DNA from: Notolepis coatsorum
Taxonomy: Eukaryota > Chordata > Actinopteri > Aulopiformes > Paralepididae
Reading direction: 5' to 3'
Length of the DNA stretch: 64,000 nt
NCBI GenBank assembly: GCA_963971535.1
Contig: OZ020593.1
Span: 12,054,809 to 12,118,808 of the forward strand
Numbering within the stretch: position 1 is the first letter of the stretch; every line of letters starts with the position of its first letter. A program made the translations under genes and the position numbers. The notes beneath the pieces are model-generated. The model worked only from the letters and a program-made list of their open reading frames with translations, was not told where the DNA came from and did no database searches. Shown here piece after piece: positions 4,791-60,742 of the stretch.

Positions 4791-5160
4791 TAATGTAATG
4801 TAATGTAATGTGAGGTACTGTAATGTAATGTAATCTAATGTAATGTGATGTAATCTAATGTAATGTAATGTGAGGTACTGTAATGTAATCTAATGTACTG
4901 TAATGTAATGTACTGTAATGTAATGTAATATACTGTAATGTAATGTACTGTAATGTAATGTAATGTAATGTAATGTGAGGTACTGTAATGTAATGTAATC
5001 TAATGTAATGTGATGTAATCTAATGTACTGTACTGTAATCTAATGTACTGTACTGTAATCTAATGTACTGTACTGTAATCTAATGTAATCTAATGTACTG
5101 TACTGTAATGTAATGCAATGTGAGGTAATGTAATGTAATGTAGTGTGAGGTCATCTCTGT
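4785..5160. repeat. TAATG pentanucleotide-derived array
   Basis: Long degenerate array of TAATG with TAATC, TACTG and TGAGG variants. It runs straight into the duplicated tnpo1 exon-end units. Confidence 0.85.
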
Positions 5161-5325
5161 GTCCTCACCTCACAGGTGTTGTAGTCCTCAGTAATGTAGT
5201 GTAATGTAATGTGGGGTCATCTCGTCGTCCTCACCTCACAGGTGTTGTAGTCCTCAGTAATGTAATGTAATGTAGTGTGAGGTCATCTCTCTGTGTCCTC
5301 ACCTCACAGGTGTTGTAGTCCTCAG
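5155..5325 (-). promoter_or_regulatory. tnpo1: Triplicated 5' splice site of tnpo1 exon 5
   Basis: On the minus strand, CTGAGGACTACAACACCTGT followed by GAG|GTGAGGAC occurs three times. Donors follow bases 5303 (native), 5235 and 5169, spaced 68 and 66 bp. The extra copies add 68 or 134 nt, neither a multiple of three, so their use would shift the frame. Confidence 0.85.
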
Positions 5326-14700: not shown

Positions 14701-17700
14701 ATAGAATTTTTATGTAAATCTAGTAGAACTGCAATAATCAAAACCAAACCATACAACGAGAAGGGGGCCAATGGTCAAAACAGACAAAAGGTACACGCTA
14801 CTGTACCATCTAACATCCAGGCCGCCTGAATACTTTCGACAACAAATGTTTGTTTCTGCGTCTCTGATTGGCCCATGCGTTTCTGGTCATGTGACATGTG
14901 CGCCAATCGTGGGACCGCAAGTTTCTACACTGGTTAAGCTTAGGCGCTCTTTCGAAGTTGGTTAAGGTTAGAGTTTGTCTTAGAGCATGGCGATAGAACG
15001 CCTGGTAGTTTGCAGGCTGTTAGACCCGGAAATAGGCGCAGAACTTGCTGTCCCACGATTGGCGCACATGTCACATGACCTGGCCAATCAGAGCGCAAAA
15101 CTCGAACGCGGAAACAAACATTTGTTGTCGAAAGTATTCACGCATCCAGGCCTGACTAAGCTGACAAGAGGTATATATATGTAACGGTTGTGACAACGTC
15201 ACCTCAAACTTCGATGCCCCAAGGGAGATTCGAACAAGGGTCTGCCACGCCGCGTGCAACAACACAGACCGCTATACCAAGAGGTGAATTCACTTCTCTG
15301 TACCGTGTCTATGCGTCTTTTGAGGATGTGAGTTTAACCCATAGCACCGCTACTCACCCCAGCCCTTCGTGACTGTGCTTCACGATACCATCCTGGCACC
15401 GCTACTCACCCCAGCCCTTCGTGACTGTGCTTCACGATACCATCCTGGCACCGCTACTCACCCCAGCCCTTCGTGACTGTGCTTCACGATACCATCCTGG
15501 CACCGCTACTCACCCCAGCCCTTCGTGACTGTGCTTCACGATACCATCCTGGCACCGCTACTCGCCCCAGCCCTTCGTGACTGTGCTTCACGATACCATC
15601 CTGGCACCGCTACTCGCCCCAGCCCTTCGTGACTGTGCTTCACGATACCATCCTGGCACCGCTACTCGCCCCAGCCCTTCGTGACTGTGCTTCACGATAC
15701 CATCCTGGCACCGCTACTCACCCCAGCCCTTAGTGACTGCTCTTCACGATACCATCCGTTACACATATATATATATATACAGAATTGGTACCAGAGGGTG
15801 TAACTCACCCACGGTGGCCCGGATGAGGGGCGAAGGGTCGCCGATGTTTTGGAGACATTCGCTTTTGATGAACTCGGACACGCCGTTGGGGAAGTTCTGA
15901 TAGTGGGCCTTCACGTTGTTCTTCAAGATCAGTCCACTCAGGGACCGGGTCGGCTCGTCTGCGGGAGGAGGAGGAGGAGGAGGAGGAAGGTCAGCGAGTT
16001 AACCCTTTCACTACCACACTACAGAAGGTGAACCCTTTCACTACCACACTACAGACAGTTAGGGCTAGATCCACAAAGATTCAGGGATTCAATCAATCAA
16101 TCTGCACAGTGATTGATTGAATGAAAATGTTATTTAACAGATTGCAGAATGGGTACAATACAGTACGGATCAATAGACACAATTGTTAAGGGGATGCAGA
16201 CCTGAGAAAGACTTTCGTCTTGTTTACATCAGGGTCCGTAATGAATTGTAAGTAAGGGTGCAACTTGCTCCGTGCAATCCATTCTTTGTGGATCTAGCCC
16301 TTAGTGTGGTAGTGAAAGGGTTAACCTTCTGTAGTGTGGTAGTGAAAGGGTTCAGATGAGATAAGATGAGATATTCCTTTATTGATCCCCTTGGTGGAAA
16401 TTCGAGTGCCATGGTAGCATGGGGGAGGGGGGAGGGGATGTACAGGTATGGGCAGGGTACTATAGTAGAAAGACATAAATATAGGCAATACAAAAAAATA
16501 AAAATAATGTAAACAGTGTAAACAAAGGTGCAGATGAGGGTCTGTATGCCAGTCAGTTATATCAGTTATATTATACGTTACAATACAATAAATAATTTGA
16601 ATCTGAATGCATACTATGAGTAAGGGTAAACTGTATACACAATGTGCAGTACACACAAGGTAGGTACCCTAACTGGCAAGTTGAAAGGGAGTTTCAATAT
16701 TGTGCAGGTTTTTGTTGTTGTTGTTTGAGGCACATTATAGAGCAAAACAGATGGGAGGTAATAATGACAATCGGTTGTTCACACAATCTACTGACAGAAA
16801 GTACAGTATAGTCAAGTTAGACCGCGCTCACAAGTTCTCACACTGGGTGCTGTAATCCCATAAAGATCAGTATATCAAAAAGCAGGGTAGCCGGACCAGC
16901 ACTCACAGGTTCAATGTTTTTTAATGGCAGCCTGAATAAAAAGCAGACATGTTTCGGACAATGTCCTTCTTCAGTGATATGGCTAGTGCTGGTCCGGCTA
17001 CCCTGCTTTTTGATAGAAAGTACAGTATGCAATACCCTCAAACCAGCATAATGGTGCACTTAGAACCGCAAAACATAAACACAGCACCTGCAGTTCCACA
17101 TTCCTGTTCAACCTGTGAGGAGAAGGATATGGAGGCACTGGGGGAGAAGAGGATGGCGTGGTGAACAGGGCAACTTCTCTACTTACACTGAATGGCGTTT
17201 AGCAGCGATAAGCTACAGAAGGGTGATTTGAAACGAGTGCTACCCTCCTTGTGGAATAAAGAACACCTTAAACACAACTCTGAACTCCATTGCCTATACC
17301 CTATAGGCTTTGTTACCCATACGACCTTTGAAGTTCTGTTGCCTATACTCAATGGATACTACTGCTTTCACTGTCTACAACTGCCCTACACTGTAATCGT
17401 AGTAATTATTAGAAAAAATAAATCAATATGTGTACAGTACTAAGCAAACACCTCCAAAAACGGTATTATCCGAGTTGACTTAATTCTATATTTTTCTAAA
17501 TTCCCCATGGCATCCCAAATCCTTCCACGAACTGCAACGCTCATAATGTTCAAATGTCTTTAAGAGCTCTCGACAATCGGGTCATCCACTGTACAGACAG
17601 TCGGGTCAGGAGTTGAGTGGTGCAGGGCATTAGGTTTAAAATTAGAATGACCCATATTCCCGCAGTGCCACCTCATCTGTGACAAAGACGGTCTCCTCCT

Positions 17701-20337: not shown

Positions 20338-20700
20338 CTCCGTCTGGGAACCCTCCGCCAGGTCCTAGTGCGCACCCTGTTTCATCCCCGCAGCCACACG
20401 TCTGGGAACCCTCCGCCAGGTCCTAGTGCTCACCCTGTTTCATCCCCACAGCCACACGTCTGGGAACCCTCCGCCAGGTCCTAGTGCTCACCCCGTTTCA
20501 TCCCCACAGCCACACGTCTGGGAACCCTCCGTGCAGGTCCTAGTGCTCACCCTGTTTCATCCCCACAGCCACACGACTGGGAACCCTCCGTGCAGGTCCT
20601 AGTGCTCACCCTGTTTCATCCCTGCAGCCACACGACTGGGAACCCTCCGTGCAGGTCCTAGTGCTCACCCTGTTTCATCCCAGCAGCCACACGACTGGGA
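20338..20700. repeat. ~60-bp minisatellite upstream of tnpo1, 6 copies
   Basis: Unit cgtctgggaaccctccgcca, then ggtcctagtgctcaccctg, then tttcatccccacagccacac. On the minus (tnpo1) strand each unit reads GATGAAACAGGGTGAGC, a plausible 5' splice site. A single extra partial copy lies beyond the foldback element at 24169-24200. Confidence 0.88.
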
Positions 20701-21094
20701 AGCGGCTATGCTTTTACCAACGCGTTCGTGTTTCCGGGTTCCCGTTTTGCGCTCTGATTGGCCACTGACCTACGCTAGTACGCCCCCCTCGTAAGTAGAG
20801 AGTCGGCGCTGCACTCAACCGATTAATTCAACAGGAAGCGATTTGTGAGTACAATACACCATCACGCCAGAGTGGATAAAGAAATGCTCCAGAAATGAAT
20901 ATGCGTAGGGAAAGGCTTAACGAGTCAGCGCGAGAGCGCACACACAAAAGCACACACGCATGATATCTGATTTATTAATGCCAAATAATGGACGACGACC
21001 GCAATTGGCACTTGAAAAGTGTAAATGATGGATTAGTCAGTAACAATTCAAGACAGCTTGTATAGCTCAACTGGTTAGTCCCCTGCCTGTGGAC

Positions 21095-29857: not shown

Positions 29858-32800
29858 GTAAGTGACTTTGGTTTTCTCCCTGAGCCATTGCTTTTTTAAA
29901 TATATATATATATACACACACTGCTGTCTACGGTTAGGCATCGATAATAACATCGATAACAATTCAAGCTAACTAAGCTAATGGCCACCACCACCATAAC
30001 AAAATGGGGGACCCTGATGTAAACAAGACGAAAGTCTTTCTCTGGTCTGCATCCCCTTAACAATTGTGTGTATTGAGCCGTACTGTATTATTGTACCCAT
30101 TCTGCAATCTGTTAATAACATTTTCAATCAATCATTCAATCAAACAAACACATCATCCATAGCGTCAGCAGCGGTTCAGGAAACAGCCCTGAGGAAGCAG
30201 CTAACACTGACTAGCTAAGCAATGGCCACAATAATAACCTCCTCCAATGTACAGTTTCTTCGTCAAATGTATACATACTCTCTTTCTTTATTAGACTCTT
30301 TTTGTATCACAAACCGTACTGTGTTTGTAAATCTGGCATGTCATAAATGTATAGATGTAACAGTACTGTATCTGTATTGATTGATTGAACACTTTATTTA
30401 ACAGGTTGCAGAATGGGTACAATACAGTACGGCTCAATACACACAATTGTTAAGGGGATGCAGACCAGAGAAAGACTTTCGTCTTGTTTACATCAGGGTC
30501 CCCCATTTTCAATTCATCATAACATATGTCATAAATGTATAGATGTAGCAGTACTGTCTATCTGTATGTCGTGTATGTCATATGTTATGATGAATTGAAA
30601 ATGGGGGACCCTGATGTAAACAAGACGAAAGGCTTTCTCTGGTCTGCATCCCTTTAATCTGTCTGTGTGGATCTGTCTTAATCTCAATCTGTTAATAAAC
30701 ATTTCAATCAATCAATCAATCAATCAATCGATCAATCGATCAAGCGGTTCAGGACATGGCCCCAGCCGCTTCATGAGGAGCTAATTATTACACTTGCTAG
30801 CTAAAGCAATGTCTATAATAATAACATCATCCATAGGGTTATTGGCGGTTCAAACACTTAATTTCAAGCATCAAACACTTAGTTTCCTGCATTCTGGTGT
30901 ACTTCGTTCTATGCAACAAGTTGTGCCCTTTCTGCATCAATTTATGGTGGAAATGTCTTTAACCGTGAATATGGATGATATTATCATATTATTATGGTCA
31001 TTGGTTAGCTAGCTAAGTGTTATTAGCGATACTCGATTGATTGATTGAAAACTTTATTAACAGATTGCAGAATGGGTACAGTATTAATACCTAACCCTAT
31101 TATCTGGTATAATATCTGGTATAATAAACCATAACGTTAGTAACTGGCGTATTGCACTACTAATCCAAACGTCATTGTTGTAAAAGGTATGTCTTTAATA
31201 GATGGGCCTAACTTTAGCTATTTATTGCTGGAATGGACAGTTTCTCCTCGGCCAAGACTAACAAGCCATGTAACGTTAAAAAAATAGAACGCGATCGATC
31301 TTGTCCTGAATGACACAATAAACACACGATATAGAACGGTTATTCCTGTACACACGCCTCGGATAAGTAATCATTCAACCAATATACCAAGGGACCTCAG
31401 TCACACACTGTTGAGATATATATTTCATGAATGGTCTGGAAAGGTACTTTAGGGCCCACATTACTTGAGTATTTGTCATCACAGTAGAAGCCACCTTGCC
31501 TAACAGCAGCATTGTTCTTCCTCTTTTCAAAACGTGACTCACAGTGGAAATCGTTCTTCCAAGACGTTCAAACCCAAGAAGAATATTCCCGAGGGCTCAC
31601 ATCAGTACGAGCTGTTGAAGCATGCAGAGGCTACACTGGGAAGTGGTAACCTGCGTATGGCAGTCATGTTACCCGAGGGTGAAGACTTGAACGAGTGGGT
31701 GGCAGTCAACAGTAAGGACACCCCCCCCCCCCCCCCCCCGGCACACCTTTGTTTGGTTATTATGGTTACTCCAGGCCCAGGGCGTAGGCTTGGTTTGGTT
31801 TCAACACTTTAAAGGTGTTGTAAGTGGTATTTTTTTTGTTTGATAAAATGTGTGGTCTACATGTCTAGCCATAACACTGAAGAAGGAACCATAGTTCCGA
31901 AACATGTCTGTTGTTTCCATTTCAGGCTGCCATTAAAACTAATGAACCTGAGAGTGCTGGTCCGGCTTTCCTGCTTTCTTGATATTCAACTTTATGGGAT
32001 TACAGCACCCAGTGTCAGACCTTGAGACTGAGAGCGTGGTCTAACTTGACAATGTGGTCTACATGTTAAAATAATAGCTCTACACTCCGACACCCACATC
32101 ACTGATATAGTGTTTGGTCAGTAACATGGGTCTCCCAGTCCCTCCTGCTCTGCAGTAAACACAAAATACATTTTCCGGTATCCCTTCCCACTTTATGGTA
32201 AATGGTGCATTTATATAGTGCTTTTATCCAAAAATCGCTTTACAATTTTTTGTTCCTCACATTCACTCAGATATTCACACAGACGGGCGGAGGCGACCAT
32301 GTAAGGTGCCAACCTGCAATTAGGGGTTAAATGACTTGCTCAAGGACACTTCGACACGCTGCCTGCTGGGAGGAGCGGCAATCGAACCGGGAACCTTCCG
32401 TTTACTAGACGACTGCTGCTCTACCTCCTGAGCCACTGTCAGGAGAGAGAACTCCACACTGCAAAATAAGAAATAAAAACTAGTTTTATTAAGCAAATGT
32501 GTCCTTGAAACAAGTAAAATAATCTGCCAGTGCATGTTGGCAAATTTGGCTTGGCAAGATTTCTTGAAATAAGGGGGGACCCACGTTACTGACCAAACAC
32601 TATATCAGTGATGGCTGTCAGCATGTAGAGCTATTTAACACATAACTATTTAACAAAATAATTCCAATTACATTAAGGGGGGGGGGGGGGGGGGGTCCTC
32701 CCCCAGGAACCTTTGAGCGTCAAACAGTCAAAATCACAAGAAATCCCATCTTTAAAAGATTAGGCTACTCCCACAGGTCTCATATTGTCCTCGGTTAGCT

Positions 32801-33627: not shown

Positions 33628-36600
33628 TCTTTATATATTTCTTTTGTATAAATTCTTTTTTTTATTATTATACATTATGTAGATACTATATCTGTATACC
33701 CCTTACCTACTCTTACTAGTTATGCTGCTGGCCAGTACGAGGGTGTGTGTCTTGGATGGGGATGTGGTGGGGATTGACGTGGTGGAGATTGATGTGTGGG
33801 GTGGGAAAACTGACTGTTCCGGGTGGGGGGGGGGGGGGGGGGGTGGTATTAAATTCCTCAGTCTAAAGAGATGACCTTGCCCCTGGCAAGCCTTCTAGTG
33901 ATCCATTGTTAAAGCGCCTCCGAGTGATCTCTTCCAGTAATGAAGGACACTCTTATCTCAGTTTTTGGATGAATCCCACTCATGAGAAACAACTAATATG
34001 TGATTCTTCTTGCAGGGAGTGCAGAAACATCTGCACTCCTATCACAGATAGCTGATGAATGACATTATTAAATGTAGCGTAATACTAAAACAAACTAAAA
34101 GCTCAAGGACTCCTATAGCCAAAGCACTCATGAGTTATACCTTATTTCTATTGGCTTAGTTGCCTACACTGTTAAAGTCTACATTTCAGAATACAATGGG
34201 GCTTAGCTGTATATTTAGGTTATTGTATTATTATATGAATGTTTATATGTTTATTTTTATAACCTTACATTGAAACGGCATTAGGAATATTGATTGGATT
34301 TAGATAAAGTAATTGAACCATCTTATTTGTCATAGGGCCTAACAAAAATAATGGTTTGGTTCCGGTTGCCGACCGACCCTGCCGATTTAGGTGCGACCCA
34401 ATTTATTTTATGAGTTTAAAAATAAAAATAAAATATTACAATTTTTTTACAATAAAGTTTCATAAAAATCTTAGTCAAACCTTTAGTATTATGGATATTA
34501 AACATGCTGGCAGAGTACATGCATCCATGTTGTTGTAAACATTTTAATTAAAGAAATTCCCTATCCATAGTCGCCGTGGGAAAGAATAAAATAAAAAATA
34601 AAATAAAATAAATTCCCTACCTACCCATGGCTTTAACTGACAACCAACAGAAAACAAACAATATTTTTTGTTATGCCCTACTACCATAGTGTCTTTATAC
34701 CTGTATCATTGTACATATTAATACTACAGCTCTGTACATACATCTTATTAGCACTATAGTACACATTTTTATATTTTATACCCAGTTTAATCACATGTAC
34801 ATTGTATATATCTATTGCACTTCACTGTTACATTTGCACTCTGGTTGGATGCCAAACCTCTTTGCATTGTACTGTACTTGTGCTGCATGATGACGATACA
34901 TTTTAATCTAATCTGATCTGATTGGGTTAGTGAAAATATGACAGCATTGATACAAGGAACAAGGTGTGTACATAAAAATGTATGTGATTTAAAAAAAAAA
35001 ATCTTTTTTTATTTCTCAGCTGTGGACTTCTTCAACCAGATCAACATGCTCTATGGCACCATCACAGACTTCTGCACGGAGGAGAGCTGTTCCGTCATGT
35101 CCGCCGGTCCCAAGTAAGTGGCTGCCCCCGTCATGTCCGCCGGTCCCAAGTAAGTGGCTGCCCCCGTCATGTCCGCCGGTCCCAAGTAAGTGGCTGCCCC
35201 CGTCATGTCCGCCGGTCCCAAGTAAGTGGCTGCCCCCGTCATGTCCGCCGGTCCCAAGTAAGTGGCTGCCCCCGTCATGTCCGCCGGTCCCAAGTAAGTG
35301 GCTGCCCCCGTCATGTCCGCCGGTCCCAAGTAAGTGGCTGCCCCCGTCATGTCCGCCGGTCCCAAGTAAGTGGCTGCCCCCGTCATGTCCGCCGGTCCCA
35401 AGTAAGTGGCTGCCCCCGTCATGTCCGCCGGTCCCAAGTAAGTGGCTGCCCCCGTCATGTCCGCCGGTCCCAAGTAAGTGGCTGCCCCCATCATGTCTGC
35501 CGGTCCCAAGTAAGTAGCTGGGTGTGGAAGCGGCTGCTAGCACGTGTGTAAGAATGTTAGTTAGTTCCTGGCCAAATTCCCAATCAGGTCTCTGGCCACC
35601 TAATCATATCCTCCCCCTTAATTGGCTGATATCAATCGGTTTGCGCAATCTGATTGGCCACTGACGTTTTTCTCAGCGCCAATCGCGTTACTCCTAACAA
35701 ACTGGTTAAGCTTGGCGACTCTTTCGAAGTCGCTCTCTTTTGAAGTTGGTTAAGGTTAGGGTTAGTTGGTTAGGGTTAGTTGGTTAAGGTTAGGGTTAGT
35801 TGGTTAAGGTTAGGGTTAGTTGGTTAAGGTTAGGGTTAGGGTAACAGCCTGCTGGCACGATTGTTAGGAGTAACGCAATTGGCGCTGAAAAAAACGTCAG
35901 TGGCCAATCAGATTGCGCAAACCGAACGCGGAAGTGCAACTCCGTTAGGGAAAATTTACATGCGAGCCGTTCAGCCATTGTGTAATGTCACGTGTGATGT
36001 GTGCCTGGTGCCAGTGTATGGCAGCCATTGAGCCTGCGTAGCCCAAGGTTGGGTGCTACCAGTGGTGGTGAAGGAGGCAATTTCCACCCTACATTGTGGG
36101 GAGCGCTTTGAGTGTCTAGAAAAGCGCTATATAAATAATGAATTATTATTATTATTATTAGTGGCGCATAAACGGGCCATTGAAAAGCCTTTTGGTCTAA
36201 TCACAGGGTATCTGTGGGGTATTAAAAAGTATTAAATTCATAATTCTCAATTTAAGTCCTTTAAAAGGTATTCAATTTAATTTGCACAGGTATTACACTT
36301 TCTTGGGGAGGCAGCCCGGCTGTTTGGAGATTAAATAATATCAAATATATGAAATGTTTGTGTATTCAAGTCGTTTTTTTTTTCGTGCAAGTGCAGCCGC
36401 CAGTTCAGTGTTGCTATGTGTTTTTTCTTTTTGCTAGTACGGTCGTGAAATTGGTATTAAATCTTGCTCTCATTCACTCTAAGGGATATGAAAAAGTATT
36501 AAATATTGAACTTGTTGAAACCTGCAGTCACCCTGAATCAGAAATGTCAGTTCTGTAAATGGAAAGACTCCAGCGGTGTCACGGTGATGAATGCCTGAGG

Positions 36601-39600
36601 TATTAATAGAACCAAGGCGAAGATTAAAGATCAAAGAGACAAAGACGTGAGGGGAGCGGAATAAAACCCAACCGGTGAATATTTGTGTCGTACAGGTACG
36701 AGTACCACTGGGCGGATGGCACCAACATCAAGAAGCCAATCAAATGCTCTGCTCCCAAGTACATCGACTACCTCATGACGTGGGTACAGGACCAGCTCGA
36801 CGACGAGACGCTGTTCCCCTCCAAGATCGGTACGAGTTTCATTTTTTTGTGAACAAATTTTTTTATTATTATTTTTTTGACATGACATACAAACATTTAC
36901 AGTAGAAAAAAAGGGTAGGAGTTTCATATAGTCTTTTGTACGAGTTTCATATCTTTGCGCTGCCGCGGCCTTCTCTTAACAGCAGGGTTCGCACACAAGG
37001 TCCTTGAAGTGCTTAAAGTGCTTGATTTTTGACCAAAAAAATCCTTGAAATTCAAATCAACCGTTCGCATTGAAAGTTTTGTTCATTCATGATACAAAAT
37101 TTCGCAATCATGAAATATATATTTTTGTATCTATAGTGTAACTAATTGTCGTAAATTGGTTTTTTAAGCCATAAATATTGACCAGATTATTATAATTTTA
37201 TATTGATTTTCTCCGGGCTCCATACAAACAATATCATAACTTCACATTCATTTATCTGAGCCTTCTGTAGTACAATTTGCATCCAGGGTTACTGAATCTG
37301 AGTTAAAGTGTTTTGTTAGTCTAGAAAAAAAAGTATAGGTTGTTATTGACTGTATTGGTCTTCATTTGTGTACTTGTGACACAAATGAAGACCAATACAG
37401 TCAATAACAACCTATACCTTTTTTTCTAGACAAACAAAAATGTATCCTTTTTAAATGCTCTTTTAAAATGAAAAATAGTGCTTGGAAAAGTATGTGAAAG
37501 TCCTTGAATTTAATTTGGCAATGTCTGTGGGAACCCTGTTAACAGTGATACTTATATGCAGTTTTGATTTTAATCGTATTTATTATGGTATATTCAGTCT
37601 TGACTCTCAGGAGGTAGAACGGCCGGCTGGTAATCGGAAGGTTCCCGGTTCGATTCCCCGCTCTCCTCCCGGCAGCGTGTCGTAGTTAACCCCTAAACCG
37701 CTGCCGATGAGCCAACGTTGCTATCGGCCAGCACTAATAGAACGGTCTCTCTCATGCATCATCAAACATAATAACATTATCAAGAATGATTTGTCAGCCA
37801 TATTAACAGCATAAATGCGAGACACTTAACCCCTAACCGCTCCCGTTGAGCAGGTCGGCACCTTGCATGGTTGGTCGCCTCCGCCGTCGATCTGTGCTCG
37901 TGGTGAATGTGAGGCATAAATTGTAAAGCGCTTTGGATAAACATGCTCTATAAATGCACCATTACCGTTTACATGCCAAATGGCTATTCAAGAAATGTCA
38001 ATTTGAATAGAGATGACCTTTCAGTTCGAGTTCTACGCTGAGATTTTCCACACGGCCATTTGTTGTGAGACGATCCCAGCAAACGGCACATTCATCTCCA
38101 AGTAAGATAGTGGAATCGTGTCTGGTGGCGTTTACTGTCGTTGAAGTTGACCCTGGGCACGATTTATGTGCCAGACTGCCATGAAACCTCCCTAAGTGTG
38201 ACCGTGACCCTCCTGGCGCCTTCTAGACGCCGTAACACTGATGGTGCCTGTAAAGGGGCATTTCACACAATGTCACACTCTCAACACTGTAAACACGAGT
38301 GCACCAATTGAATTTGGTTTGCAACATTTTGAGTAGGGCTGACCTTCGAAGCTTTTTTTGGCAATCGAAGCTTCGGGGCCGAGCTTCGATTTTAATTCGA
38401 AGCTTTGAAAAAATATATATATAATAATTATATAATAATATAATATTTTTTTGTTTTTAAATGTGCTCTATAAATAAAGTGGATTGGATTAATTAATTAA
38501 GTAGCCCCTTTCGTGACTGTGACGCAGCCAACAAGGTTTCACTCGGCTGCGCTGCCTGGGTGCAGTGGGGCTGCTCTCACAGCCAACGACATGACATTAC
38601 ATAATTATGTTGCAACCTTCGTCTATCAAGCAAACAATTATATACATATTTATATGTAGTTGATAGAGACAAAGGCAGACTTCGACTTAATTAAGCACGT
38701 TTTATTAAGACATATTTTTATATGGGTCGGGACACTTTAAAAAAGCAGCACAATGAACACATCTGTCCGACATAGTCTTAAATAACAAACGGCATTGCTT
38801 CGCTTCTTCGTCGACATGTCTGCTGCACGTTGTTGTTTTCAACACAGATAATCTCCACATGCTTGTTGTAGAGAGGTGGAGTCGAGGCGCCGCTTACTTT
38901 CGTTTCATTGGAATGGAGGCGGGAAGGCGCAGCTTACTTTCGTTTCATTGGAATGGAGGCGTAAGATTTTGGAGGCAAAAAAAATGTATATTAAAAAAAA
39001 AATAAGAAATTATATATATTTTTATTTTTTTAAACTTTGATTTTTTTTTTATGTTCGAAGCTTGTGCCATCGAACGAAGCTTTGAAGTATTTAAGACAGC
39101 CCTAATTTTGAGAGTTAAAGTCACCATGAAATGGCGTTGCGATCGTGTTTGGATTCTGTGATTTGACGTGTTTCAGAGTGGAACGGGCTTTTAAAGCGAG
39201 ACTTGCTTCCCGAAAGGAACTGATGGAACGTTCACCAAAGATATAGCAGTAAAACGGAGTGACAGAGATGTCAAGTCATTGGGGACCAATAGGAGGAGAG
39301 TTTTGTATGATCAGAGGTAGGAAAGAAGCGGGACTATTTTAAAATAAACTATCATCATTTATTGGATGGAGATTTTATTCCTGAGCACATGAATGGGTCT
39401 GTGAAAAATACAAAACGAAAATATAAAAATACACTTGAACGAAAGAAAACATTTATCTTTCACTTCATATTGACTTTTGAAGTTTGTGATGTCATCCGAG
39501 GACATCCTTGTGTTATTATGGCACAATGAAATGATGTAGATACGGCATAACATTAGTTAAAAATATAATATAATAATAATAAACATACACTTATAGTATA

Positions 39601-42600
39601 TACTTACTATCAGTGAATATGTTTCTTTAGGACTTAAATTCAAAACAAACAAAGGCAGCGGCGGTTAGGTGGTCGAGCGGAGATTGCGTTCGTCACCAGC
39701 CCCGGAGCTGTGAGCTTGGTTCGCCTGTTCGAATCCAGCTCACAGCTCCGGGGTTGTCACCAGCTTGGCTGGCCGTCTGCACTGATACAATTGGCTGTAT
39801 CAGAGGGTGGGAGAAGCTGGCGGGGTGGGTCCGGGTCGTTGTAAACAGCGACTCCTACAGTTCGGTCGGGGCGCCTGCTAAGCGCGGATTGGACGTGAGG
39901 GGGATAGTGTGGTCCTCCCACACGCTACGCCCTCTCAATGAGAATCCGCGCTGCCAGGTGAAAAGAAGCGGTGATTGGCTGGACGTGTGTCGGAGGAAGC
40001 ACGTGGTAGCCTCCACTCTCCCAAATGATCTGACTGTGGGGGGTAAAGCGCAGCGACCAGGAAGGGACTGGGAATTGGCATGCGACTAACATTGGGATGG
40101 GAGAAAATCGGAGGAAAATGGAGGGGAAAAAAAAAAAAAACAAAGGCTCAGAAGGTAGAGTGGTGGTCGTCTGGTAATCAGAAGGTTCCCGGTTTGATTC
40201 CGACTCCTCCCGGCAGCGTGTCGAAGTGTCCTTGAGCAAGACACTTAACCCCTAGCTGTTCCCAATGAGCAGGTCGGCACCTTGCACGGTCGCCTCCGCC
40301 GTCGGTGTGTGAATGTGTGAATGTGAGGCATAAGTTGCAAAGCGCTTTGGATAAAAGCTACTATATGATAAATGCAGTCCATTACAAAATAGCTAGTGAA
40401 TTAAAAACCATAGCAATAATCCCGCTTGGAAACTCAACTACCTTGATGACTGCTACAAAATAGTGTCCAGGTGTAAATGGATTTACTTACTCATCACTCA
40501 TTTCAAAGAAAGCTTTAGGATACAGGGACCACAGGGTGCATTGCGTTGTCTTCTACAAAAACAAGCAAACAAACACATTGCTTCTCCCACCTCTATTGCA
40601 ACATTATGCAAGGTTGAACGACAGACTGAACTTCAAATAATGTCAGAGTGATGCATCATGCACGGTTCATCTCGTAAGGAATATAGCCAGCTGCGTTTGC
40701 GTGTCTGAACGTGTGATGTGTTTGAGGCCTTGGGATGTGAAAACGGAGAAGTGAAAGGGGAAGATGGCAGGGTCGCCCCCTGGGACCTGCTGTGTACGGA
40801 TATGCAGCTGTGCCGTTCAATCGCCCCGCTGTGTGCATATTGGGTCAGGCCAAAGAAGGCTTAATGAAAACAACAACACTCTCTCCAAAAATAGATAGTC
40901 GTCAAAATATGGAGAATAATGAACATGATCTCAGTTGTGATTGGAGGATTAAGAAAAGAGGGTGGGTTTGAGATGGGTAAATTTGGTTGTTAAAGTTGTG
41001 TGACGTATCAACCTTCCAATAAATAGTTTCTGGGGCCAAGCGTCCTGCGTTGGCTGAGGCTCTGGTCTTTTCAACATGCGTATCTATGCCACGTGCTGCG
41101 TCCCTTGTTGTTTTAATAGATCCGAGTAGGGGTGTAACAATGCATCGATCCTAAGGTGACGATTCAACTGCATCGATTTGAAAACGTAATCGATTATTAA
41201 AAAATATATAAATTATTGACCTATAGTCCATTCATGCTGAGTGAATCAGTTCCCCCAGCCACATTTGTCTATAAATCTTTTTGGGGGGAATTAACTGATT
41301 GAAAATGTATCGCATCGAATCGAATCGTGGTCAAATGAAGATATTTCACGATTCATTGAATCGTCGCCTGAAGAATCATAATCGAATCGTTGCACCCCTA
41401 GATCTGAGTCATAAAGAAACAGTTTGGGGTTGTGCTGTGCTCCTAGTATCTCCCGCCGTCTGAAGCGGAGCGCTTGGCCCCCGGACATGAAAATACGTCA
41501 CACTACTCGACAACCGTATAGCTCCTCTTACCCTTTTTGTTTGTTTGTGGTCCAGGTGTCCCTTTCAAGCGTAACTTCATGTCGGTGGCGAAGACGATCC
41601 TGAAGCGGCTGTTCAGGGTCTACGCCCACATCTACCACCAGCACTTTGACTCAGTGATGCAGCTGCAGGAGGAGGCGCACCTCAACACCTCCTTCAAGCA
41701 CTTCATCTTCTTCGTTCAGGTAATCACTTGGGATGGGAGAAAAATAAGGAGAAAAAGTGGATAAAAAAAAGAATAGGTATAAAAGTAGTGCAATGTTGAA
41801 AGTGCAGACATAAGAATAGGCATAAATAAGTACAATAAGTATAGTGTTCCTTAGGGGTGTAACTAGGGTTGGGCAAGTAACATATAAGTAACATATTGGC
41901 ATTTCGATTCTTAATTTCGATTTCTAAAAAAAAACTTAATTTTTTTTTTACTTTGTTAATTAATACCCTAGTTACAGTACAGCAACCAAATTAAACTGTA
42001 TCAAGTCAACTGACAATGTGAATAGTATGAAAACAATTTTAAGATTTTTCAAAAAAAGAAGAAAATCTCCTGCGAAATAAGCTGTGACCTGTTTTGACCT
42101 GCACCTCAAAGAATCGGAACCGAGAATCGTTTAGAACAGGAATCGAAATGGAGAATCGGAATCGTTCAAATCCAAAAGATGCCCAACCCTAGGTGTAACG
42201 ATTCGACCTCACAATGATTAGATTAGATTACGATTCTTCAGGCAACGATTCAATGCATCATGAAAACTCTTCATTTGACCACGATTCGATTAGATACATT
42301 TTCTATCAGTTAATTCCCAAAAAAAGGTTGAATACACAAATGTGGCTGGGGGAACTGACTCACTCAGCATGAATGGACTATATAGGTCAATACAAATAAT
42401 ACACAATAATACACACATAGAATCGATTCTAATCGATTCTAACATTTTCAAATCGATGCAGTTGACTCGGCACATTAGGATTGATGCATGTCGATGCATC
42501 GTTGCGCCCCCTACTAGTGTTCCTCGGTTCCGTCGTGTGACGTCTGGTTCCCCGTCTCTTCCTGCAGGAGTTCAACCTGATCGACAGGCGGGAGCTGGTC

Positions 42601-42645
42601 CCTCTGCAGGAGCTGATCGAGAAGCTGACCACCAAGGACAGATAA
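29844..42645 (+). CDS. mob1b: MOB kinase activator 1B, complete six-exon gene
   Basis: Hippo-pathway scaffold. MST1/2-phosphorylated MOB1 binds and activates LATS1/2 and NDR kinases in the cytoplasm. Seen: exons 29844-29857, 31545-31711, 35020-35113, 36696-36829, 41556-41719 and 42568-42645 join to 651 nt (216 residues plus TAA), the usual family length. All introns are GT-AG with correct phases. Visible landmarks are MSFLFG at the start, phosphosites T12 (SSKTFK) and T35 (EATLGSG), zinc ligands C79/C84 (DFCTEESC) and H161/H166 (AHIYHQHF), and the C-terminus [21 protein letters not shown] and SAGPK are MOB1B-like rather than MOB1A-like. GVPFKRNF differs from the usual GVPFPKNF. Adjacent co-oriented dck supports the mob1b call. 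Oddity: the exon 3 donor is in a 12-copy tandem array. Most introns are filled with transposable elements. Confidence 0.96.
30003..30147 (+). mobile_element. LINE-A 3'-UTR copy in mob1b intron 1
   Basis: atgggggaccctgatgtaaa through ctgcaatctgttaataacat and (CAAT)n. Confidence 0.8.
30245..30735. mobile_element. LINE-A 3' ends, minus copy nested in a plus copy
   Basis: A plus-strand LINE-A 3' UTR (30245-30370 and 30515-30735 with an (AATC)n tail) is interrupted by a minus-strand copy starting (ATTG)n at 30375. The pair forms an inverted repeat around aattcatcataacatatg. Confidence 0.65.
31545..31711 (+). CDS. mob1b: mob1b exon 2 ([12 protein letters not shown]...NEWVAVN)
   Basis: 167 nt with acceptor actcacag and donor AACA|GTAAGG. 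It encodes the N-terminal regulatory segment with T12 and T35, the sites phosphorylated by MST kinases in this family. Confidence 0.95.
31857..32050 (+). mobile_element. Penelope-like repeat with hammerhead-like motif
   Basis: Contains CTGAAGA at 31877-31883, stem GGAAC/GTTCC (31885-31889, 31894-31898), GAAA 31899-31902 and CATGTC to 31908, then agagtgctggtccggcttt and gggattacagcacccagtg, as in the 16.9-kb copy. Located in mob1b intron 2. Confidence 0.5.
32197..32440 (-). mobile_element. Type 2 SINE, full length
   Basis: Reverse copy from ggtaaatggtgcatttatat to ctacctcctgagccac, with a B-box-like aatcgaaccgggaacctt. Confidence 0.8.
33440..34920 (+). mobile_element. LINE 3'-UTR fragment split by ~0.9 kb
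   Basis: The same 3' end as at 4140-4790, interrupted after ctggccagta (33737) and resumed at about 34678 (actaccatagtgtctttat). The intervening 33738-34677 is not classified. Confidence 0.5.
35020..35113 (+). CDS. mob1b: mob1b exon 3 ([31 protein letters not shown])
   Basis: 94 nt from acceptor tttctcag to the first donor CCCAA|GTAAGT at 35114. It carries two of the four zinc ligands (C79, C84). The last 20 nt plus 16 intronic nt form the unit of the 36-bp array that follows. Any of the later donors would extend the exon and meet TAA directly after K92. Confidence 0.95.
35094..35520 (+). promoter_or_regulatory. mob1b: 12-copy tandem array of mob1b exon 3 end plus 5' splice site
   Basis: Exact 36-bp period: GTCATGTCCGCCGGTCCCAA (exon end) then GTAAGTGGCTGCCCCC (intron start). 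Twelve identical GTAAGT donors at 35114 + 36n up to 35510. Only the last copy varies (atcatgtctgcc, gtaagtagc). In the mob1b frame each added unit begins with TAA directly after the lysine codon. Confidence 0.95.
35628..35965. mobile_element. Foldback MITE, copy D (mob1b intron 3)
   Basis: Inverted arms tttgcgcaatctgattggcc and ggccaatcagattgcgcaaa. The centre has GGTTAAGGTTAGGGTTAGTT tandem repeats. The right arm carries tag-position sequence tgcaactccgttaggg (35935-35950); the left outer segment is not matched. Confidence 0.7.
36300..36545. repeat. Dispersed repeat shared with 61930-62560
   Basis: ggcagcccggctgtttggag, tattcaagtcg and gtgcagccgc match the sequence flanking the TTAA MITE at 61984-62395. 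This copy lacks the MITE (empty site atatatgaaatgttt). Confidence 0.65.
36696..36829 (+). CDS. mob1b: mob1b exon 4 ([16 protein letters not shown]...LFPSKI)
   Basis: 134 nt, acceptor gtcgtacag, donor ATCG|GTACGA. It completes the AA|G lysine codon from exon 3, then encodes a highly conserved Mob-domain segment. The junction with exon 3 requires the AA-phase-2 ending. Confidence 0.95.
36983..37538. mobile_element. hAT-like MITE with internal hairpin
   Basis: CAGGGTTCGCAC and GGGAACCCTG ends, ttaacag on both sides. A near-perfect inverted repeat of about 50-bp arms lies at 37321-37432. Confidence 0.7.
37602..37970 (+). mobile_element. Type 2 SINE with internal insertion
   Basis: Head gaggtagaacggccggctgg, ggttcgattcc. 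The middle carries about 110 unrelated bp (37735-37815). The end is aaagcgctttggataaac. Confidence 0.7.
38334..39104. mobile_element. hAT MITE, 8-bp TSD attttgag
   Basis: Ends TAGGGCTG and CAGCCCTA, with sub-terminal TTCGAAGCTT-rich sequence. Perfect duplication at 38326-38333 and 39105-39112. In mob1b intron 4. Confidence 0.9.
39656..40137 (+). mobile_element. Type 1 SINE, full length
   Basis: Head ggcggttaggtggtcgagcg through the A-rich tail. Duplication aaacaaaggc on both sides. The same subtype as the SINE split by the LINE at 56.8-60.5 kb. Confidence 0.88.
40148..40390 (+). mobile_element. Type 2 SINE
   Basis: ggctcagaaggtagagtggt, gtccttgagcaagacactta, aaagcgctttggataaaag; joined directly to the preceding SINE. 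Confidence 0.8.
41127..41400. mobile_element. hAT MITE (mob1b intron 4)
   Basis: Ends TAGGGGTGTAACAATG and CGTTGCACCCCTA. 8-bp flanks gatccgag/gatctgag (7/8). Confidence 0.88.
41556..41719 (+). CDS. mob1b: mob1b exon 5 ([18 protein letters not shown]...HFIFFVQ)
   Basis: 164 nt, acceptor gtggtccag, donor TTCAG|GTAATC. It contains zinc ligands H161 and H166. A truncated SINE 3' tail starts about 8 nt inside the following intron. Confidence 0.95.
41728..41773 (+). mobile_element. Type 1 SINE 3'-tail fragment beside exon 5 donor
   Basis: ttgggatgggagaaaaataa, gagaaaaagtggata(A)n equals the last ~45 bp of the type 1 SINE and starts 8 nt after the GTAATC donor. Confidence 0.7.
41852..42513. mobile_element. 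hAT MITE (outer) in mob1b intron 5
   Basis: Starts TAGGGGTGTAAC, ends GTTGCGCCCCCTA, with agtgttcct on both sides. Interrupted by a second hAT at 41864-42191. Confidence 0.8.
41864..42191. mobile_element. hAT MITE (inner, nested)
   Basis: Ends TAGGGTTGGGCA and TGCCCAACCCTA. Perfect 8-bp duplication ggtgtaac at 41856-41863 and 42192-42199. Confidence 0.9.
42568..42645 (+). CDS. mob1b: mob1b exon 6 ([25 protein letters not shown], stop)
   Basis: 78 nt from acceptor cttcctgcag to TAA at 42643-42645. The nested hAT element in intron 5 ends only about 55 bp before this exon. Confidence 0.95.
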   Translation, partial: EFNLIDRRELVPLQELIEKLTTKDR

Positions 42646-48230: not shown

Positions 48231-48284
48231 AATTACTGGAGAATTAGGACTATCTGACTCAACTGACTCAATAATCTATCTCAA

Positions 48285-50950
48285 CACTGTTAGGACTATC
48301 TGACTCTTAAAAACACTGTTAGGACTATCTGACTCTTAAAAACACTGTTAGGACTATCTGACTCTTAAAAACACTGTTAGGACTATCTGACTCTTAAAAA
48401 CACTGTTAGGACTATCTGACTCTTAAAAACACTGTTAGGACTATCTGACTCTTAAAAACACTGTTAGGACTATCTGACTCTTAAAAACACTGTTAGGACT
48501 ATCTGACTCTTAATAAACACTGTTAGGACTATCTGACTCTTAATCAACACTGTTAGGACTATCTGACTCTTAATCAACACTGTTAGGACTATCTGACTCT
48601 TAATAAACACTGTTAGGACCATCTGACTCTTAATCAACACTGTTAGGACCGTCTGACTCTTAATCAACACTGTTAGGACTATCTGACTCTTAATCAACAC
48701 TGTTAGGACCATCTGACTCTTAATCAACACTGTTAGGACTATCTGACTCTTAATCAACACTGTTAGGACTGTCTGACTCTTAATCAACACTGTTAGGACT
48801 ATCTGACTCTTAATCAACACTTTTAGGACTATCTGACTCTTAATAAACACTGTTAGGACTGTCTGACTCTTAATAAACACTGTTAGGACTATCTGACTCT
48901 TAAAAACACTGTTAGGACTATCTGACTCTTAATAAACACTGTTAGGACCATCTGACTCTTAATCAACACTGTTAGGACTATCTGACTCTTAATAAACACT
49001 GTTAGGACCATCTGACTCTTAATCAACACTGTTAGGACTATCTGACTCTTAATCAACACTGTTAGGACTATCTGACTCTTAATAAACACTGTTAGGACCA
49101 TCTGACTCTTAATCAACACTGTTAGGACTATCTGACTCTTAATCAACACTGTTAGGACTATCTGACTCTTAATCAACACTTTTAGGACTATCTGACTCTT
49201 AATAAACACTGTTAGGACTGTCTGACTCTTAATAAACACTGTTAGGACTATCTGACTCTTAATCAACACTGTTAGGACTATCTGACTCTTAATCAACACT
49301 GTTAGGACTATCTGACTCTTAATCAACACTGTTAGGACTATCTGACTCTTAAAAACACTGTTAGGACTATCTGACTCTTAACTAAAGTTTTCAATCAATC
49401 AATCAAACTATGACTCTTAATAATAAACACTGTTAGGACTATCTGACTCTTAATAATACACACTGTTAGGGCTATCTGACTCTTAATAATAAACACTGTT
49501 AGGACTATCTGACTCTTAATAAACACTGTTAGGACTATCTGACTCTCAATAATAAACACTGTTAGGGCTATCTGACTCTTAATAATAAACACTGTTAGGA
49601 CTATCTGACTCTTAATAAACACTTTTAGGACTATCTGACTCTTAATAAACACTTTTAGGACTATCTGACTCTTAAAAACACTGTTAGGACTATCTGACTC
49701 TTAAAAACACTGTTAGGACTATCTGACTCTTAAAAACACTGTTAGGACTATCTGACTCTTAAAAACACTGTTAGGACTATCTGACTCTTAATAAACACTG
49801 TTAGGACTATCTGACTCTTAATCAACACTGTTAGGACTATCTGACTCTTAATCAACACTGTTAGGACTATCTGACTCTTAATAAACACTGTTAGGACCAT
49901 CTGACTCTTAATCAACACTGTTAGGACCGTCTGACTCTTAATCAACACTGTTAGGACTATCTGACTCTTAATCAACACTGTTAGGACCATCTGACTCTTA
50001 ATCAACACTGTTAGGACTATCTGACTCTTAATCAACACTGTTAGGACTGTCTGACTCTTAATCAACACTGTTAGGACTATCTGACTCTTAATCAACACTT
50101 TTAGGACTATCTGACTCTTAATAAACACTGTTAGGACTGTCTGACTCTTAATAAACACTGTTAGGACTATCTGACTCTTAAAAACACTGTTAGGACTATC
50201 TGACTCTTAATAAACACTGTTAGGACCATCTGACTCTTAATCAACACTGTTAGGACTATCTGACTCTTAATAAACACTGTTAGGACCATCTGACTCTTAA
50301 TCAACACTGTTAGGACTATCTGACTCTTAATCAACACTGTTAGGACTATCTGACTCTTAATAAACACTGTTAGGACCATCTGACTCTTAATCAACACTGT
50401 TAGGACTATCTGACTCTTAATCAACACTGTTAGGACTATCTGACTCTTAATCAACACTTTTAGGACTATCTGACTCTTAATAAACACTGTTAGGACTGTC
50501 TGACTCTTAATAAACACTGTTAGGACTATCTGACTCTTAATCAACACTGTTAGGACTATCTGACTCTTAATCAACACTGTTAGGACTATCTGACTCTTAA
50601 TCAACACTGTTAGGACTATCTGACTCTTAAAAACACTGTTAGGACTATCTGACTCTTAACTAAAGTTTTCAATCAATCAATCAAACTATGACTCTTAATA
50701 ATAAACACTGTTAGGACTATCTGACTCTTAATAATACACACTGTTAGGGCTATCTGACTCTTAATAATAAACACTGTTAGGACTATCTGACTCTTAATAA
50801 ACACTGTTAGGACTATCTGACTCTCAATAATAAACACTGTTAGGGCTATCTGACTCTTAATAATAAACACTGTTAGGACTATCTGACTCTTAATAAACAC
50901 TTTTAGGACTATCTGACTCTTAATAAACACTTTTAGGACTATCTGACTCT
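48285..50950. repeat. ~30-bp minisatellite with exact 1278-bp higher-order duplication
   Basis: Units of 29-33 bp around ACTGTTAGGACTATCTGACTC, separated by TTAAAA, TTAATAA, TTAATCA or TTAATAATA variants. The variant order from about 48394-49671 repeats at 49672-50949. A LINE-A-like tail remnant (taaagttttcaatcaatcaa) occurs once in each half (49384, 50662). Confidence 0.95.
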
Positions 50951-51082
50951 TAATAATAAACACTGCATGGACTCTGTGTAGTGTGTTACTACGGTTTGGA
51001 CCATGTATACCATCATCATCACTATTACTACTGTCTGATTGAATCCTGCCACTCACTACTGTTATCACTATTATCATTACTA

Positions 51083-55009: not shown

Positions 55010-55985
55010 GAGCTCACTGAGCCTACACCCCAGAACCCCTCCCCTCTCACTGAGCCCACACCCCAGAACCCCTCCCCTCTCACTGAGCCCACACCCCAGA
55101 ACCCCTCCCCTCTCACTGAGCCCACACCCCAGAACCCACCTCCTCCCCTCTCACTGAGCCTACACCCCAGAACCCACCTCCTCCCCCCTCACTGAGCCTA
55201 CACCCCAGAACCCACCTCCTCCCCTCTCACTGAGCCCACACCCCAGAACCCACCTCCTCCCCTCTCACTGAGCCCACACCCCAGAACCCCCCTCCCCTCT
55301 CACTGAGCCCACACCCCAGAACCCCCCTCCCCTCTCACTGAGCCCACACCCCAGAACCCCCCTCCCCTCTCACTGAGCCCACACCCCAGAACCCACCTCC
55401 TCCCCTCTCACTGAGCCCACACCCCAGAACCCACCTCCTCCTCCCCTCTCACTGAGCCCACACCCCAGAACCCACCCCCTCCCCTCTCACTGAGCCTACA
55501 CCCCAGAACCCACCTCCTCCCCTCTCACTGAGCCTACACCCCAGAACCCACCTCCTCCCCTCTCACTGAGCCCACACCCCAGAACCCACCTCCTCCCCTC
55601 TCACTGAGCCTACACCCCAGAACCCACCTCCTCCCCTCTCACTGAGCCCACACCCCAGAACCCACCTCCTCCCCTCACTGAGCCTACACCCCAGAACCCA
55701 CCTCCTCCCCTCTCACTGAGCCTACACCCCAGAACCCACCTCCTCCCCTCTCACTGAGCCCACACCCCAGAACCCACCTCCTCCTCCCCTCTCACTGAGC
55801 CCACACCCCAGAACCCACCTCCTCCCCTCTCACTGAGCCTACACCCCAGAACCCACCTCCTCCTCCCCTCTCACTGAGCCCAGAACCCACCTCCTCCCCT
55901 CTCACTGAGCCCACACCCCAGAACCCACCTCCTCCCCTCTCACTGAGCCCACACCCCAGAACCCCCCTCCTCTGCTCTCACCTCC
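55010..55985. repeat. ~38-bp pyrimidine-rich minisatellite, about 25 copies
   Basis: Unit ctcactgagcccacacccca + gaacccacctcctcccct with 31-41-bp length variants. In dck intron 2. Confidence 0.93.
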
Positions 55986-55990
55986 TCAGC

Positions 55991-56173
55991 CTCAGGTGGC
56001 TCAGAGTGGAGGAGAGGGTCTCTCAAATCAAACTGTGTCTGGTCCACAGGATGTTTAAACGGGAGGCTCAGCGCTACCTCACTGACTGTTTCTGTAAAGT
56101 CAGTGACGTCGTACACGGCTACTCCACCAGAGGGAGCTCCACCAACATCGTACCCTTCAAATTTAAAACTTGA
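55991..56173 (+). pseudogene. LINE C-terminal fragment
   Basis: The 60-codon frame reads LRWLRVEERVSQIKLCLVHR, then FCKVSDVVHGYSTRGSSTN, and ends TGA at 56171. It aligns with LGWLRVDDRVQQLAMGLVYK and KVSEYHNHYTRGSSTNHVKP of the long LINE below. A distinct, 5'-truncated relative. Confidence 0.75.
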
Positions 56174-56597
56174 ATTGCCAAATGTACCTTTTTATATTAT
56201 GCAGCAATTTTATAGAACAGACAACCTGAAAATATAACGCTACTTGCTTCCAGTTTTACCTTCAAGACCTCCTTAAAAAAAATTGCTGCAAAACGGTTCT
56301 TAATCCTCTGTTTTTTTTTAATCTGTCCCCTGTATTTATTTTAAATATTTGGAACCCCTGTAGGGTAATTTTTATTTGGTGAGGTCTCTATTGATGTGAA
56401 GTATTGTTTTAGTTTTTATATATTTTATCTTGTTTTATGTTCCCCGCGCGCACACACACACACGCTCACACATTCACACTTACATTCACTTCACAAGGAC
56501 CACAATGGAAACAAGCTCTAGCTAGGGCTTTATTGTGTTTTTATCCTTTTGATCAATATTATTTGTATTGCATTGCACAATCCTTGTTTAATCCTGG

Positions 56598-59800: not shown

Positions 59801-60153
59801 TCTACCCCCTCCACCCCAGCTAAACACCCATCAAGTGTGTCATAAAAGCCACTCTGTTCTGGTGGTCTATAGATTGTGCCTACTAGTACTGGTTTCGCCC
59901 TGTCTAATAAGATTTCAATCCAAACAGTTTCAATTTCATCATGGTTAAGGTCAGTACGGTTGATGTATTTGGTATCCTTGTGTATATACACACAGACGCC
60001 ACCTCCATACTGGTTCCTATCCCTCCTGACTATTGAGTAGTTTTCAATTTCAATCTCTGGATCCTGTACAGATGAGTCTAATTTTGTTTCTGTGAAACAC
60101 AATATGTTAGCCTTACCGTTTAAAAACAACTGTTTGATTTCAGTTGGCAGTTC
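56863..60153 (-). mobile_element. LINE-A: L2/CR1-like non-LTR retrotransposon, near full coding length
   Basis: The element runs from the protein-coding region to the 3' UTR (57281-56881) and a (TTCA)n tail. Its 3' UTR is the source type of all LINE-A tails in the window. It inserted into a SINE in the same orientation. The 5' end appears truncated just inside the endonuclease domain. Clade placement (L2/CR1/Rex-like) is by general motif resemblance only. Confidence 0.88.
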
Positions 60154-60252
60154 ATGCCAATTCCCAATCCCCTTCCTGGTCGCTGCGCACTTACCCCCCA
60201 CAGTCAGATCATCTGGGAGAGTGGAGGCTATCACGTGCTTCCTCCGACACAC
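57282..60252 (-). pseudogene. LINE endonuclease-reverse transcriptase reading frame, one frameshift
   Basis: Endonuclease part (about 60150-59550): ILCFTETKLDSS, RDRNQYGGGVCVYIH, VGTIYRPP, ILIGDWNTDM, QTTIDLILTS and GLSDHYMIF. Reverse transcriptase part: GNYRPVSILTSISKVMEKIV, FQSGFRTSHSTDTCL, MLDLQKAFDTVNHSIL, GVPQGSILGPLLFLIYANDM and the catalytic LFLFADDSALL. C-terminal part to TWPP-like end at 57282. One frame change occurs near 58760, between DNIPSKFL and DAAAAITPV, equivalent to one extra or two missing bases. Otherwise no stops, suggesting recent insertion. The first ~35 codons from ATG 60252 (MCRRKHVIAS...) are SINE sequence, not LINE. Confidence 0.88.
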
Positions 60253-60742
60253 GTCCAGCCAATCAATCGCTTCTTTTCACCTGGCAGCGCGGACTCTCAC
60301 TGAGAGGGCGTAGCGTGTGGAAGGATCACACTATCCCACTCAGGTCCCATCCGCGCTTAGCAGGCGCCCCGACCGAACTGTAGGAGTCGCTGTTTACAAC
60401 GACCCGGACCCACCCCGCCAGCTTCTCCCACCCTCTAATACTGCCAATTGTATTAGTGCAGACGGCCAGCCAAGCTGGTGACAACCCCGGAGCTCCGGGG
60501 TTGGTGACGAACGCAATCTCCGCTACGCCACCTAACCGCCGTTCCATTTCCTTTGTAATATCCTTCATACAAACATTTAACTTTTGGAATTGAAATAACA
60601 ATAATATATTGACTGTTTTCTCATCTGAAATCTCACGTAGTTTATAATCCTGCAGAGAGGAGCAACACTGTAGCACTGAACACACTTTGATGAACATTGT
60701 TACTCAGCCGATAGAGTTCTACCCTTCCTGCTGACTTGTCGT

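What the first reader, a model, noticed from the sequence alone, without database searches (positions are those of the whole stretch)
35094..35520. Twelve identical 5' splice sites in tandem at mob1b exon 3, eleven of them leading to an in-frame stop
The last 20 nt of exon 3 and the first 16 nt of intron 3 are repeated 12 times with an exact 36-bp period, so twelve identical GTAAGT donors compete. Only the first joins correctly to exon 4. Because 36 is divisible by 3, every other donor adds codons that start with TAA right after K92. This would remove H161/H166 of the zinc site and most of the Mob domain, or trigger decay. Donor choice could therefore act as a length-dependent dial on MOB1 output (inference). 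The near-identity of the units suggests recent expansion or selection for homogeneity.
Basis: partly seen in the sequence, partly recalled or inferred. Interest (0 to 1): 0.9.

Follow-up and report, generated by a model that had tools for sequence, protein, structure and literature searches.

The report
Minisatellite spanning a mob1b splice donor
In what is probably a fish gene for a growth-control protein, the place where an exon ends has been copied twelve times in a row, so the cell must pick the first copy to make the protein; human genes CBS and ABCA7 carry the same kind of repeat, so this is a striking new example of a known thing rather than a new mechanism.

Summary
Twelve CAA|GTAAGT donors lie 36 bp apart at the end of mob1b exon 3 (last exon bases 35113 to 35509). 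Only donor 1 gives the full protein. Donors 2-12 give the same stop after K92 in a decay-type transcript. The stop comes from reading AAG-TAA into the intron, not from 36 being divisible by three.

Best reading: a donor-spanning minisatellite. It fits a 35-bp duplication between AGCTG words in exon (35085) and intron (35516), plus one C, then amplification: 431 = 35 + 11×36.

In the same window TNPO1 exon 4 has its end and donor in three copies. With 2 of 8 mapped donors in arrays, this is not above background (P about 0.27).

Human parallels: the CBS exon 13 and ABCA7 exon 18 VNTRs. In ABCA7, one-unit retention is rare and independent of length, while skipping of the next exon grows with length. 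A length dial working by donor choice is therefore unproven and not favoured. No RNA, population or related-genome data could be reached.

The parts
35020..35113 (+). mob1b exon 3, ending at donor 1 (94 nt)
   Evidence: Acceptor TTTCTCAG before 35020, donor CAA|GTAAGT after 35113; in-frame join to exons 2 and 4
35092..35520 (+). 36-bp minisatellite across the exon 3/intron 3 junction, 11.9 copies
   Evidence: TRF row; units listed and compared
35114..35119 (+). donor 1 (GTAAGT), the only one giving the full protein
   Evidence: Join at each donor translated
35150..35515 (+). donors 2-12 (GTAAGT starting at 35150 + 36k, k = 0-10); each gives a stop after K92
35474..35509 (+). last unit, with two differences, both at CpG sites (3 CpG per unit fall to 1)
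35085..35089 (+). AGCTG in exon 3, proposed left edge of the founding duplication
   Evidence: One of exactly two AGCTG in 35060-35560
35516..35520 (+). AGCTG in intron 3 after donor 12, proposed right edge; 431 bp = 35 + 11 x 36 from the first
36696..36829 (+). mob1b exon 4 (134 nt), the acceptor shared by all twelve donors
5125..5325 (-). TNPO1 exon 4 end plus donor in three copies (donors after 5303, 5235, 5169); a second junction-spanning array in the window
   Evidence: TRF row; read on the - strand; located and scored; read through

Best explanation
This is a minisatellite that arose across the exon 3/intron 3 junction of mob1b and has copied the splice donor. Inferred origin: a tandem duplication between two AGCTG words, one in the exon and one 6 nt into the intron, copied the last 29 nt of the exon plus GTAAGT (35 bp); a one-base C gain made the unit 36 bp; recent amplification spread it. 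Shown by sequence: splicing from donor 1 leaves the other copies inside intron 3 and preserves the protein, and every other donor gives a stop after K92. Inferred working: donor 1 is chosen in most transcripts, because it is made first and gives the short, well-defined exon; occasional use of donors 2-12 gives decayed transcripts, a small loss of MOB1B output that may or may not vary with copy number.
For: Twelve donors in 36-bp register, 10 of 11 units identical. Only donor 1 keeps the frame; the other 11 stop at the same codon, 330-690 nt before the last junction. Two AGCTG words exactly 35 + 11 x 36 bp apart. TNPO1 exon 4 shows the same anatomy with 3 donors, again with only the first productive. 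The window is 15% tandem repeat. Published human cases of the same anatomy: CBS and ABCA7, where one-unit retention is 2 +/- 1% and such transcripts rise when decay is blocked.
Against: No RNA data, so first-donor use is inferred. The 9-mers are identical, predicted U1 pairing is slightly better at donor 12 (-7.2) than at donors 1-11 (-6.7), and no RNA structure was found that would hide the later donors, so the sequence itself does not explain why donor 1 should win. From recall, classical tests with duplicated donors often favoured the donor nearest the acceptor, which here would be donor 12. In the CBS 844ins68 allele, a duplicated junction, the passage seen says the more distal copy is used. 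The origin model rests on one sequence.
Confidence: 0.68

Rival explanations
1. One reading: the share of donors 2-12 grows with copy number, and this donor choice sets MOB1B output as a selected regulatory device.
For: Eleven unproductive donors with the same 9-mer; for CBS a review reports lower activity with more repeats.
Against: In ABCA7 one-unit retention does not change with length. A second array in TNPO1 and a repeat-rich window fit neutral expansion. No sign of selection was found; the near-identity is shared by other arrays. Conservation in relatives could not be tested at DNA level.
Confidence: 0.1
2. ABCA7-like effect: donor 1 is used, but a longer array disturbs definition of the next exon, so exon 4 skipping (or lower expression) rises with length. 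Skipping exon 4 (134 nt) would break the frame.
For: Seen in ABCA7 for exon 19 skipping with VNTR length. Exon 4 is not a multiple of three, while exons 3 + 4 together are.
Against: No RNA data; the ABCA7 unit has a different sequence, and its arrays range from about 300 bp to nearly 10 kb, while this one is about 430 bp.
Confidence: 0.12
3. Assembly artefact: the copy number, or the array itself, is an error of the assembler.
For: Ten units are letter-perfect; tandem repeats are a known source of assembly error, with Atlantic cod as a case study (passages).
Against: The last unit has its own two differences and the flanks join correctly to exon and intron; an independent junction array with diverged copies exists in TNPO1. 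The exact copy number may still be wrong.
Confidence: 0.05

Closest known systems
Human CBS 31-bp VNTR at the exon 13/intron 13 boundary, c.1444_1467+7(16_21) (passages of PMC2630376 and PMC5188458)
   Same: A minisatellite whose unit, by its name, is the exon end plus the first intron bases (24 + 7 nt), so the donor is copied many times; alleles of 16-21 copies.
   Different: Other gene, sequence and unit length; known to vary between people and reported to go with enzyme activity. Nothing of that kind is known here.
Human ABCA7 intron 18 25-bp VNTR (passages of PMC5954066)
   Same: The array begins at the exon 18 donor; each unit starts with a GT; use of the next unit's donor gives a premature stop and decay.
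   Different: The unit starts at the GT and lies in the intron, so the exon end is not said to be copied; units vary slightly; length is shown to act on exon 19 skipping.
Tandem repeats at exon-intron boundaries of human duplicated genes (passages of PMC2812944)
   Same: Repeats across junctions that change splicing patterns.
   Different: There they form new introns in recent gene copies; here an old conserved intron carries extra donors.
UBC tandem array of dual-specific splice sites (abstract of PMC10809524)
   Same: A tandem array with a usable splice site at each unit.
   Different: That kind needs AGGT acting as donor and acceptor and coding units; mob1b units have AAGT and an in-frame stop. 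The TNPO1 exon 4 copies do have AGGT.

Membership tests
Donor-spanning VNTR (CBS / ABCA7 kind) | Minisatellite unit that contains the splice donor of a coding exon | tested here: met
   36-bp unit with exon end and GTAAGT, 12 donors
Donor-spanning VNTR (CBS / ABCA7 kind) | First donor gives the normal product | tested here: met
   By reading frame only: donor 1 gives the full protein, donors 2-12 stop after K92; RNA not examined
Donor-spanning VNTR (CBS / ABCA7 kind) | Copy number varies between individuals | not testable with these tools
   One sequence only
Donor-spanning VNTR (CBS / ABCA7 kind) | Length changes splicing or expression | not testable with these tools
   No RNA data
Dual-specific splice-site array (UBC kind) | AGGT at each unit boundary | tested here: not met
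   CAA|GTAAGT at all 12 sites
Dual-specific splice-site array (UBC kind) | Units open in the reading frame of the gene | tested here: not met
   AAG TAA in frame at the first copied donor
Regulated splicing coupled to nonsense-mediated decay (poison extension) | Alternative form carries a stop well upstream of a later junction | tested here: met
   Stop 330-690 nt before the last junction for donors 2-12
Regulated splicing coupled to nonsense-mediated decay (poison extension) | Conserved across species | tested here: inconclusive
   Among the 120 listed of 3067 protein hits, insertions of 5 or more residues at residues 90-92 occur in 3 (P0069, P0071, P0089), none like this array; truncated products would not be listed and no fish DNA could be searched
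Regulated splicing coupled to nonsense-mediated decay (poison extension) | The alternative form is made and regulated | not testable with these tools
   No RNA data

The most novel reading that the evidence does not exclude
In this repeat-rich genome, minisatellites that span exon-donor junctions are a recurrent class (mob1b with 12 donors and TNPO1 with 3, in one 64-kb window). They are tolerated because splicing during transcription obeys a strict 'first donor wins' rule, and their lengths leave a graded, heritable leak into decayed transcripts across many genes: natural dose series for how the spliceosome chooses among identical donors.
Probability: 0.15. Interest if true: 0.7.

Novelty: new member of a known kind. 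Interest (0 to 1): 0.42.

Why it matters
Twelve donors with the same 9-mer in one intron, only one of them productive, are a clean natural test of how cells choose among equal splice donors. MOB1B is a core Hippo-pathway protein (recalled), so even a small length-dependent loss would be of interest. The second array, in TNPO1, shows that it is not a quirk of one gene. The kind is known from human CBS and ABCA7, so the finding extends that kind rather than founding a new one.

Tried and rejected
RNA structure hiding the later donors: no support; the exon-plus-array RNA folds less stably than all 100 shuffles (z +4.36). Divisibility by three as the cause of the stop: rejected. Dual-specific sites (UBC kind): rejected for mob1b. 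Enrichment of arrays at donors: not shown; 2 of 8 mapped donors and 0 of 8 mapped acceptors have a 24-mer across the junction that recurs within 700 bp with at most 2 mismatches, against 254 of 2000 random positions, binomial P 0.27. Extended exon-3 isoforms in relatives: none like this array among the 120 listed of 3067 hits. Naming the species: MOB1 is too conserved, and the LINE open frame gave 91 hits, none above 69% identity. Rfam: 0 matches in the window at gathering score. The open frame next to the 55013-55981 array could not be assigned to a gene: no Pfam match, only one PDB match at E 1.4. The array 51 nt downstream of TNPO1 exon 3 holds GTGAGT in several units, but no copy of the 24-mer across that exon's junction lies within 700 bp. 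Literature: nine searches, (no paper; no paper; no paper; 1,052 papers with 3 of the 4 terms; none of the 8 listed contains mob1b). I make no wider claim that the array is unpublished.

Full report
What is there. The window holds a vertebrate mob1b gene on the + strand, probably of a teleost (inferred from its nearest relatives; no species was identified). Exons 2-6 are at 31545-31711, 35020-35113, 36696-36829, 41556-41719 and 42568-42645. The short first coding exon was not found by the one strict pattern tried. The joined product matches a solved MOB1B chain over all 211 residues and Pfam Mob1_phocein. Several fish relatives share its VPFKRNF stretch. At the end of exon 3, CAAGTAAGT occurs 12 times at exact 36-bp steps and nowhere else on the + strand of the window. 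TRF gives 35092-35520, 11.9 copies, 99% matches. Of the 11 donor-to-donor units 10 are identical; the last has two differences, both at CpG sites, and its CpG count falls from 3 to 1.

What each donor would give. I joined exon 3, ended at each of the 12 donors, to exon 4. Donor 1 gives the full protein. Donors 2-12 all give ...MSAGPK and stop. That stop lies 32-392 nt upstream of the extended exon's own junction (32 for donor 2, below the usual rule of about 50 nt, which is recalled) and 330-690 nt upstream of the last junction, so all eleven are expected decay targets. The stop is made by reading CCC AAG TAA into the first copied intron start and would be there with any period. C79 and C84 remain and H161 and H166 are lost (positions; their zinc role is recalled).

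Are the donors equal? The 9-mers are identical. Predicted U1 pairing is -6.7 kcal/mol for donors 1-11 and -7.2 for donor 12, whose intron flank differs (with a recalled U1 end). On a recalled frequency table they score 5.64 bits, above the mob1b donors of exons 2, 4 and 5 (2.24, 0.32, 3.51), but in U1 pairing the exon 5 donor (-8.1) is stronger than they are. The RNA of exon 3 plus array is less stably folded than all 100 shuffles. Nothing in these measures singles out donor 1, so its expected use rests on position and on the need for the protein.

How it arose (inference from one sequence). In 35060-35560 the word AGCTG occurs exactly twice: in exon 3 at 35085 and in the intron after donor 12 at 35516, 431 bp apart, which is 35 + 11 x 36. 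A single-copy ancestor would have had two AGCTG words 35 bp apart, holding the last 29 nt of the exon and GTAAGT between their starts. A tandem duplication between such short matches, a one-base C gain, an A-to-G change after GTAAGT, and amplification give the present array. The CCCCC of the units resembles a CCC codon for P85. Of 17 relatives read, 14 have P there, 2 have S (P0061 stickleback MOB1Bb, P0075 zebrafish MOB1A) and 1 has A (P0005); the window's exon codes S85. This fits copies taken before the exon changed, but is not proof.

Not alone. TNPO1, on the - strand of the same window, was identified by its exon 3 (matches to transportin-1 chains) and mapped with a recalled human protein: last exon bases 19852, 18459, 15809 and 5303 for the four mapped exons. 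The last 22 nt of exon 4 with the donor and the start of the intron stand in three copies, donors after 5303, 5235 and 5169. Donors 2 and 3 add 68 and 134 nt and shift the frame; donor 3 also meets a stop. In both genes only the first donor is productive by reading frame. This fits a simple filter: an array that starts in coding sequence can survive if it spans a donor, because splicing from the first copy hides the rest. Donors are not shown to attract arrays: 2 of 8 mapped donors and 0 of 8 mapped acceptors lie in such repeats, against 254 of 2000 random positions, P about 0.27. Tandem repeats cover 9829 of 64000 bases.

Known parallels. For human CBS, passages of PMC2630376 name a 31-bp VNTR c.1444_1467+7(16_21), which I read as 24 exon nt plus 7 intron nt, with alleles of 16-21 copies. 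Passages of PMC5188458 say that more repeats lower CBS activity, citing Lievers 2001, which I did not read, and call the overall results inconsistent. The same PMC2630376 passages describe another CBS duplication (844ins68, intron 7/exon 8 junction) in which the more distal copy is favoured; that speaks against a general rule that the first copy wins. For human ABCA7, passages of PMC5954066 describe a 25-bp VNTR whose first GT is the exon 18 donor, with 23.7 copies in the reference. Retention of one unit makes a stop and stands at 2 +/- 1% (reading 'respectively' in the order given) and is not affected by length; transcripts with such stops rise under cycloheximide; exon 19 skipping rises with length and expression falls. 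Passages of PMC2812944 describe tandem repeats at exon-intron boundaries of human duplicated genes. The abstract of PMC10809524 describes the AGGT array of UBC, a rule that mob1b does not meet. Passages of PMC5241972 report about three-fold more tandem repeats in Atlantic cod than in other vertebrates; whether this window is from such a fish is not known.

Judgement. The likeliest working is first-donor use with a small leak into decayed transcripts. Whether copy number tunes MOB1B output is open, and if it does, the ABCA7 case points to skipping of exon 4 at least as much as to donor choice. No RNA, individuals or related genomes could be examined; the genome search tool could not be reached in any of nine tries.

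Noticed in passing
5125-5325 (- strand): TNPO1 exon 4: last 22 exon nt, donor and intron start in three tandem copies, donors after 5303, 5235 and 5169; the copies carry AGGT at the junction.
   Followed up: yes
15344-15757: 52-bp array, 8 copies, 51 nt downstream of TNPO1 exon 3; several units hold GGGTGAGT on the - strand.
   Followed up: partly
55013-55981: 38-bp array, 26 copies, directly beside an open frame on the - strand (55943-56191) that could end in a donor; many units hold GAGGTGGGT. The gene was not identified.
   Followed up: partly
20341-20701: 59-bp array, 6 copies, starting 385 nt upstream of the TNPO1 start codon.
   Followed up: no
35744-35842: Telomere-like GGTTAG repeats in mob1b intron 3, with flanks that by eye look like inverted copies of each other, as in a small DNA transposon.
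   Followed up: no
48283-50956: 30-bp array of 88 copies.
   Followed up: no
57285-60276 (- strand): LINE-type open frames of 508 and 599 codons; for the second, the best protein relative is 57% identical over 92% and the highest identity is 69% over 40%.
   Followed up: partly
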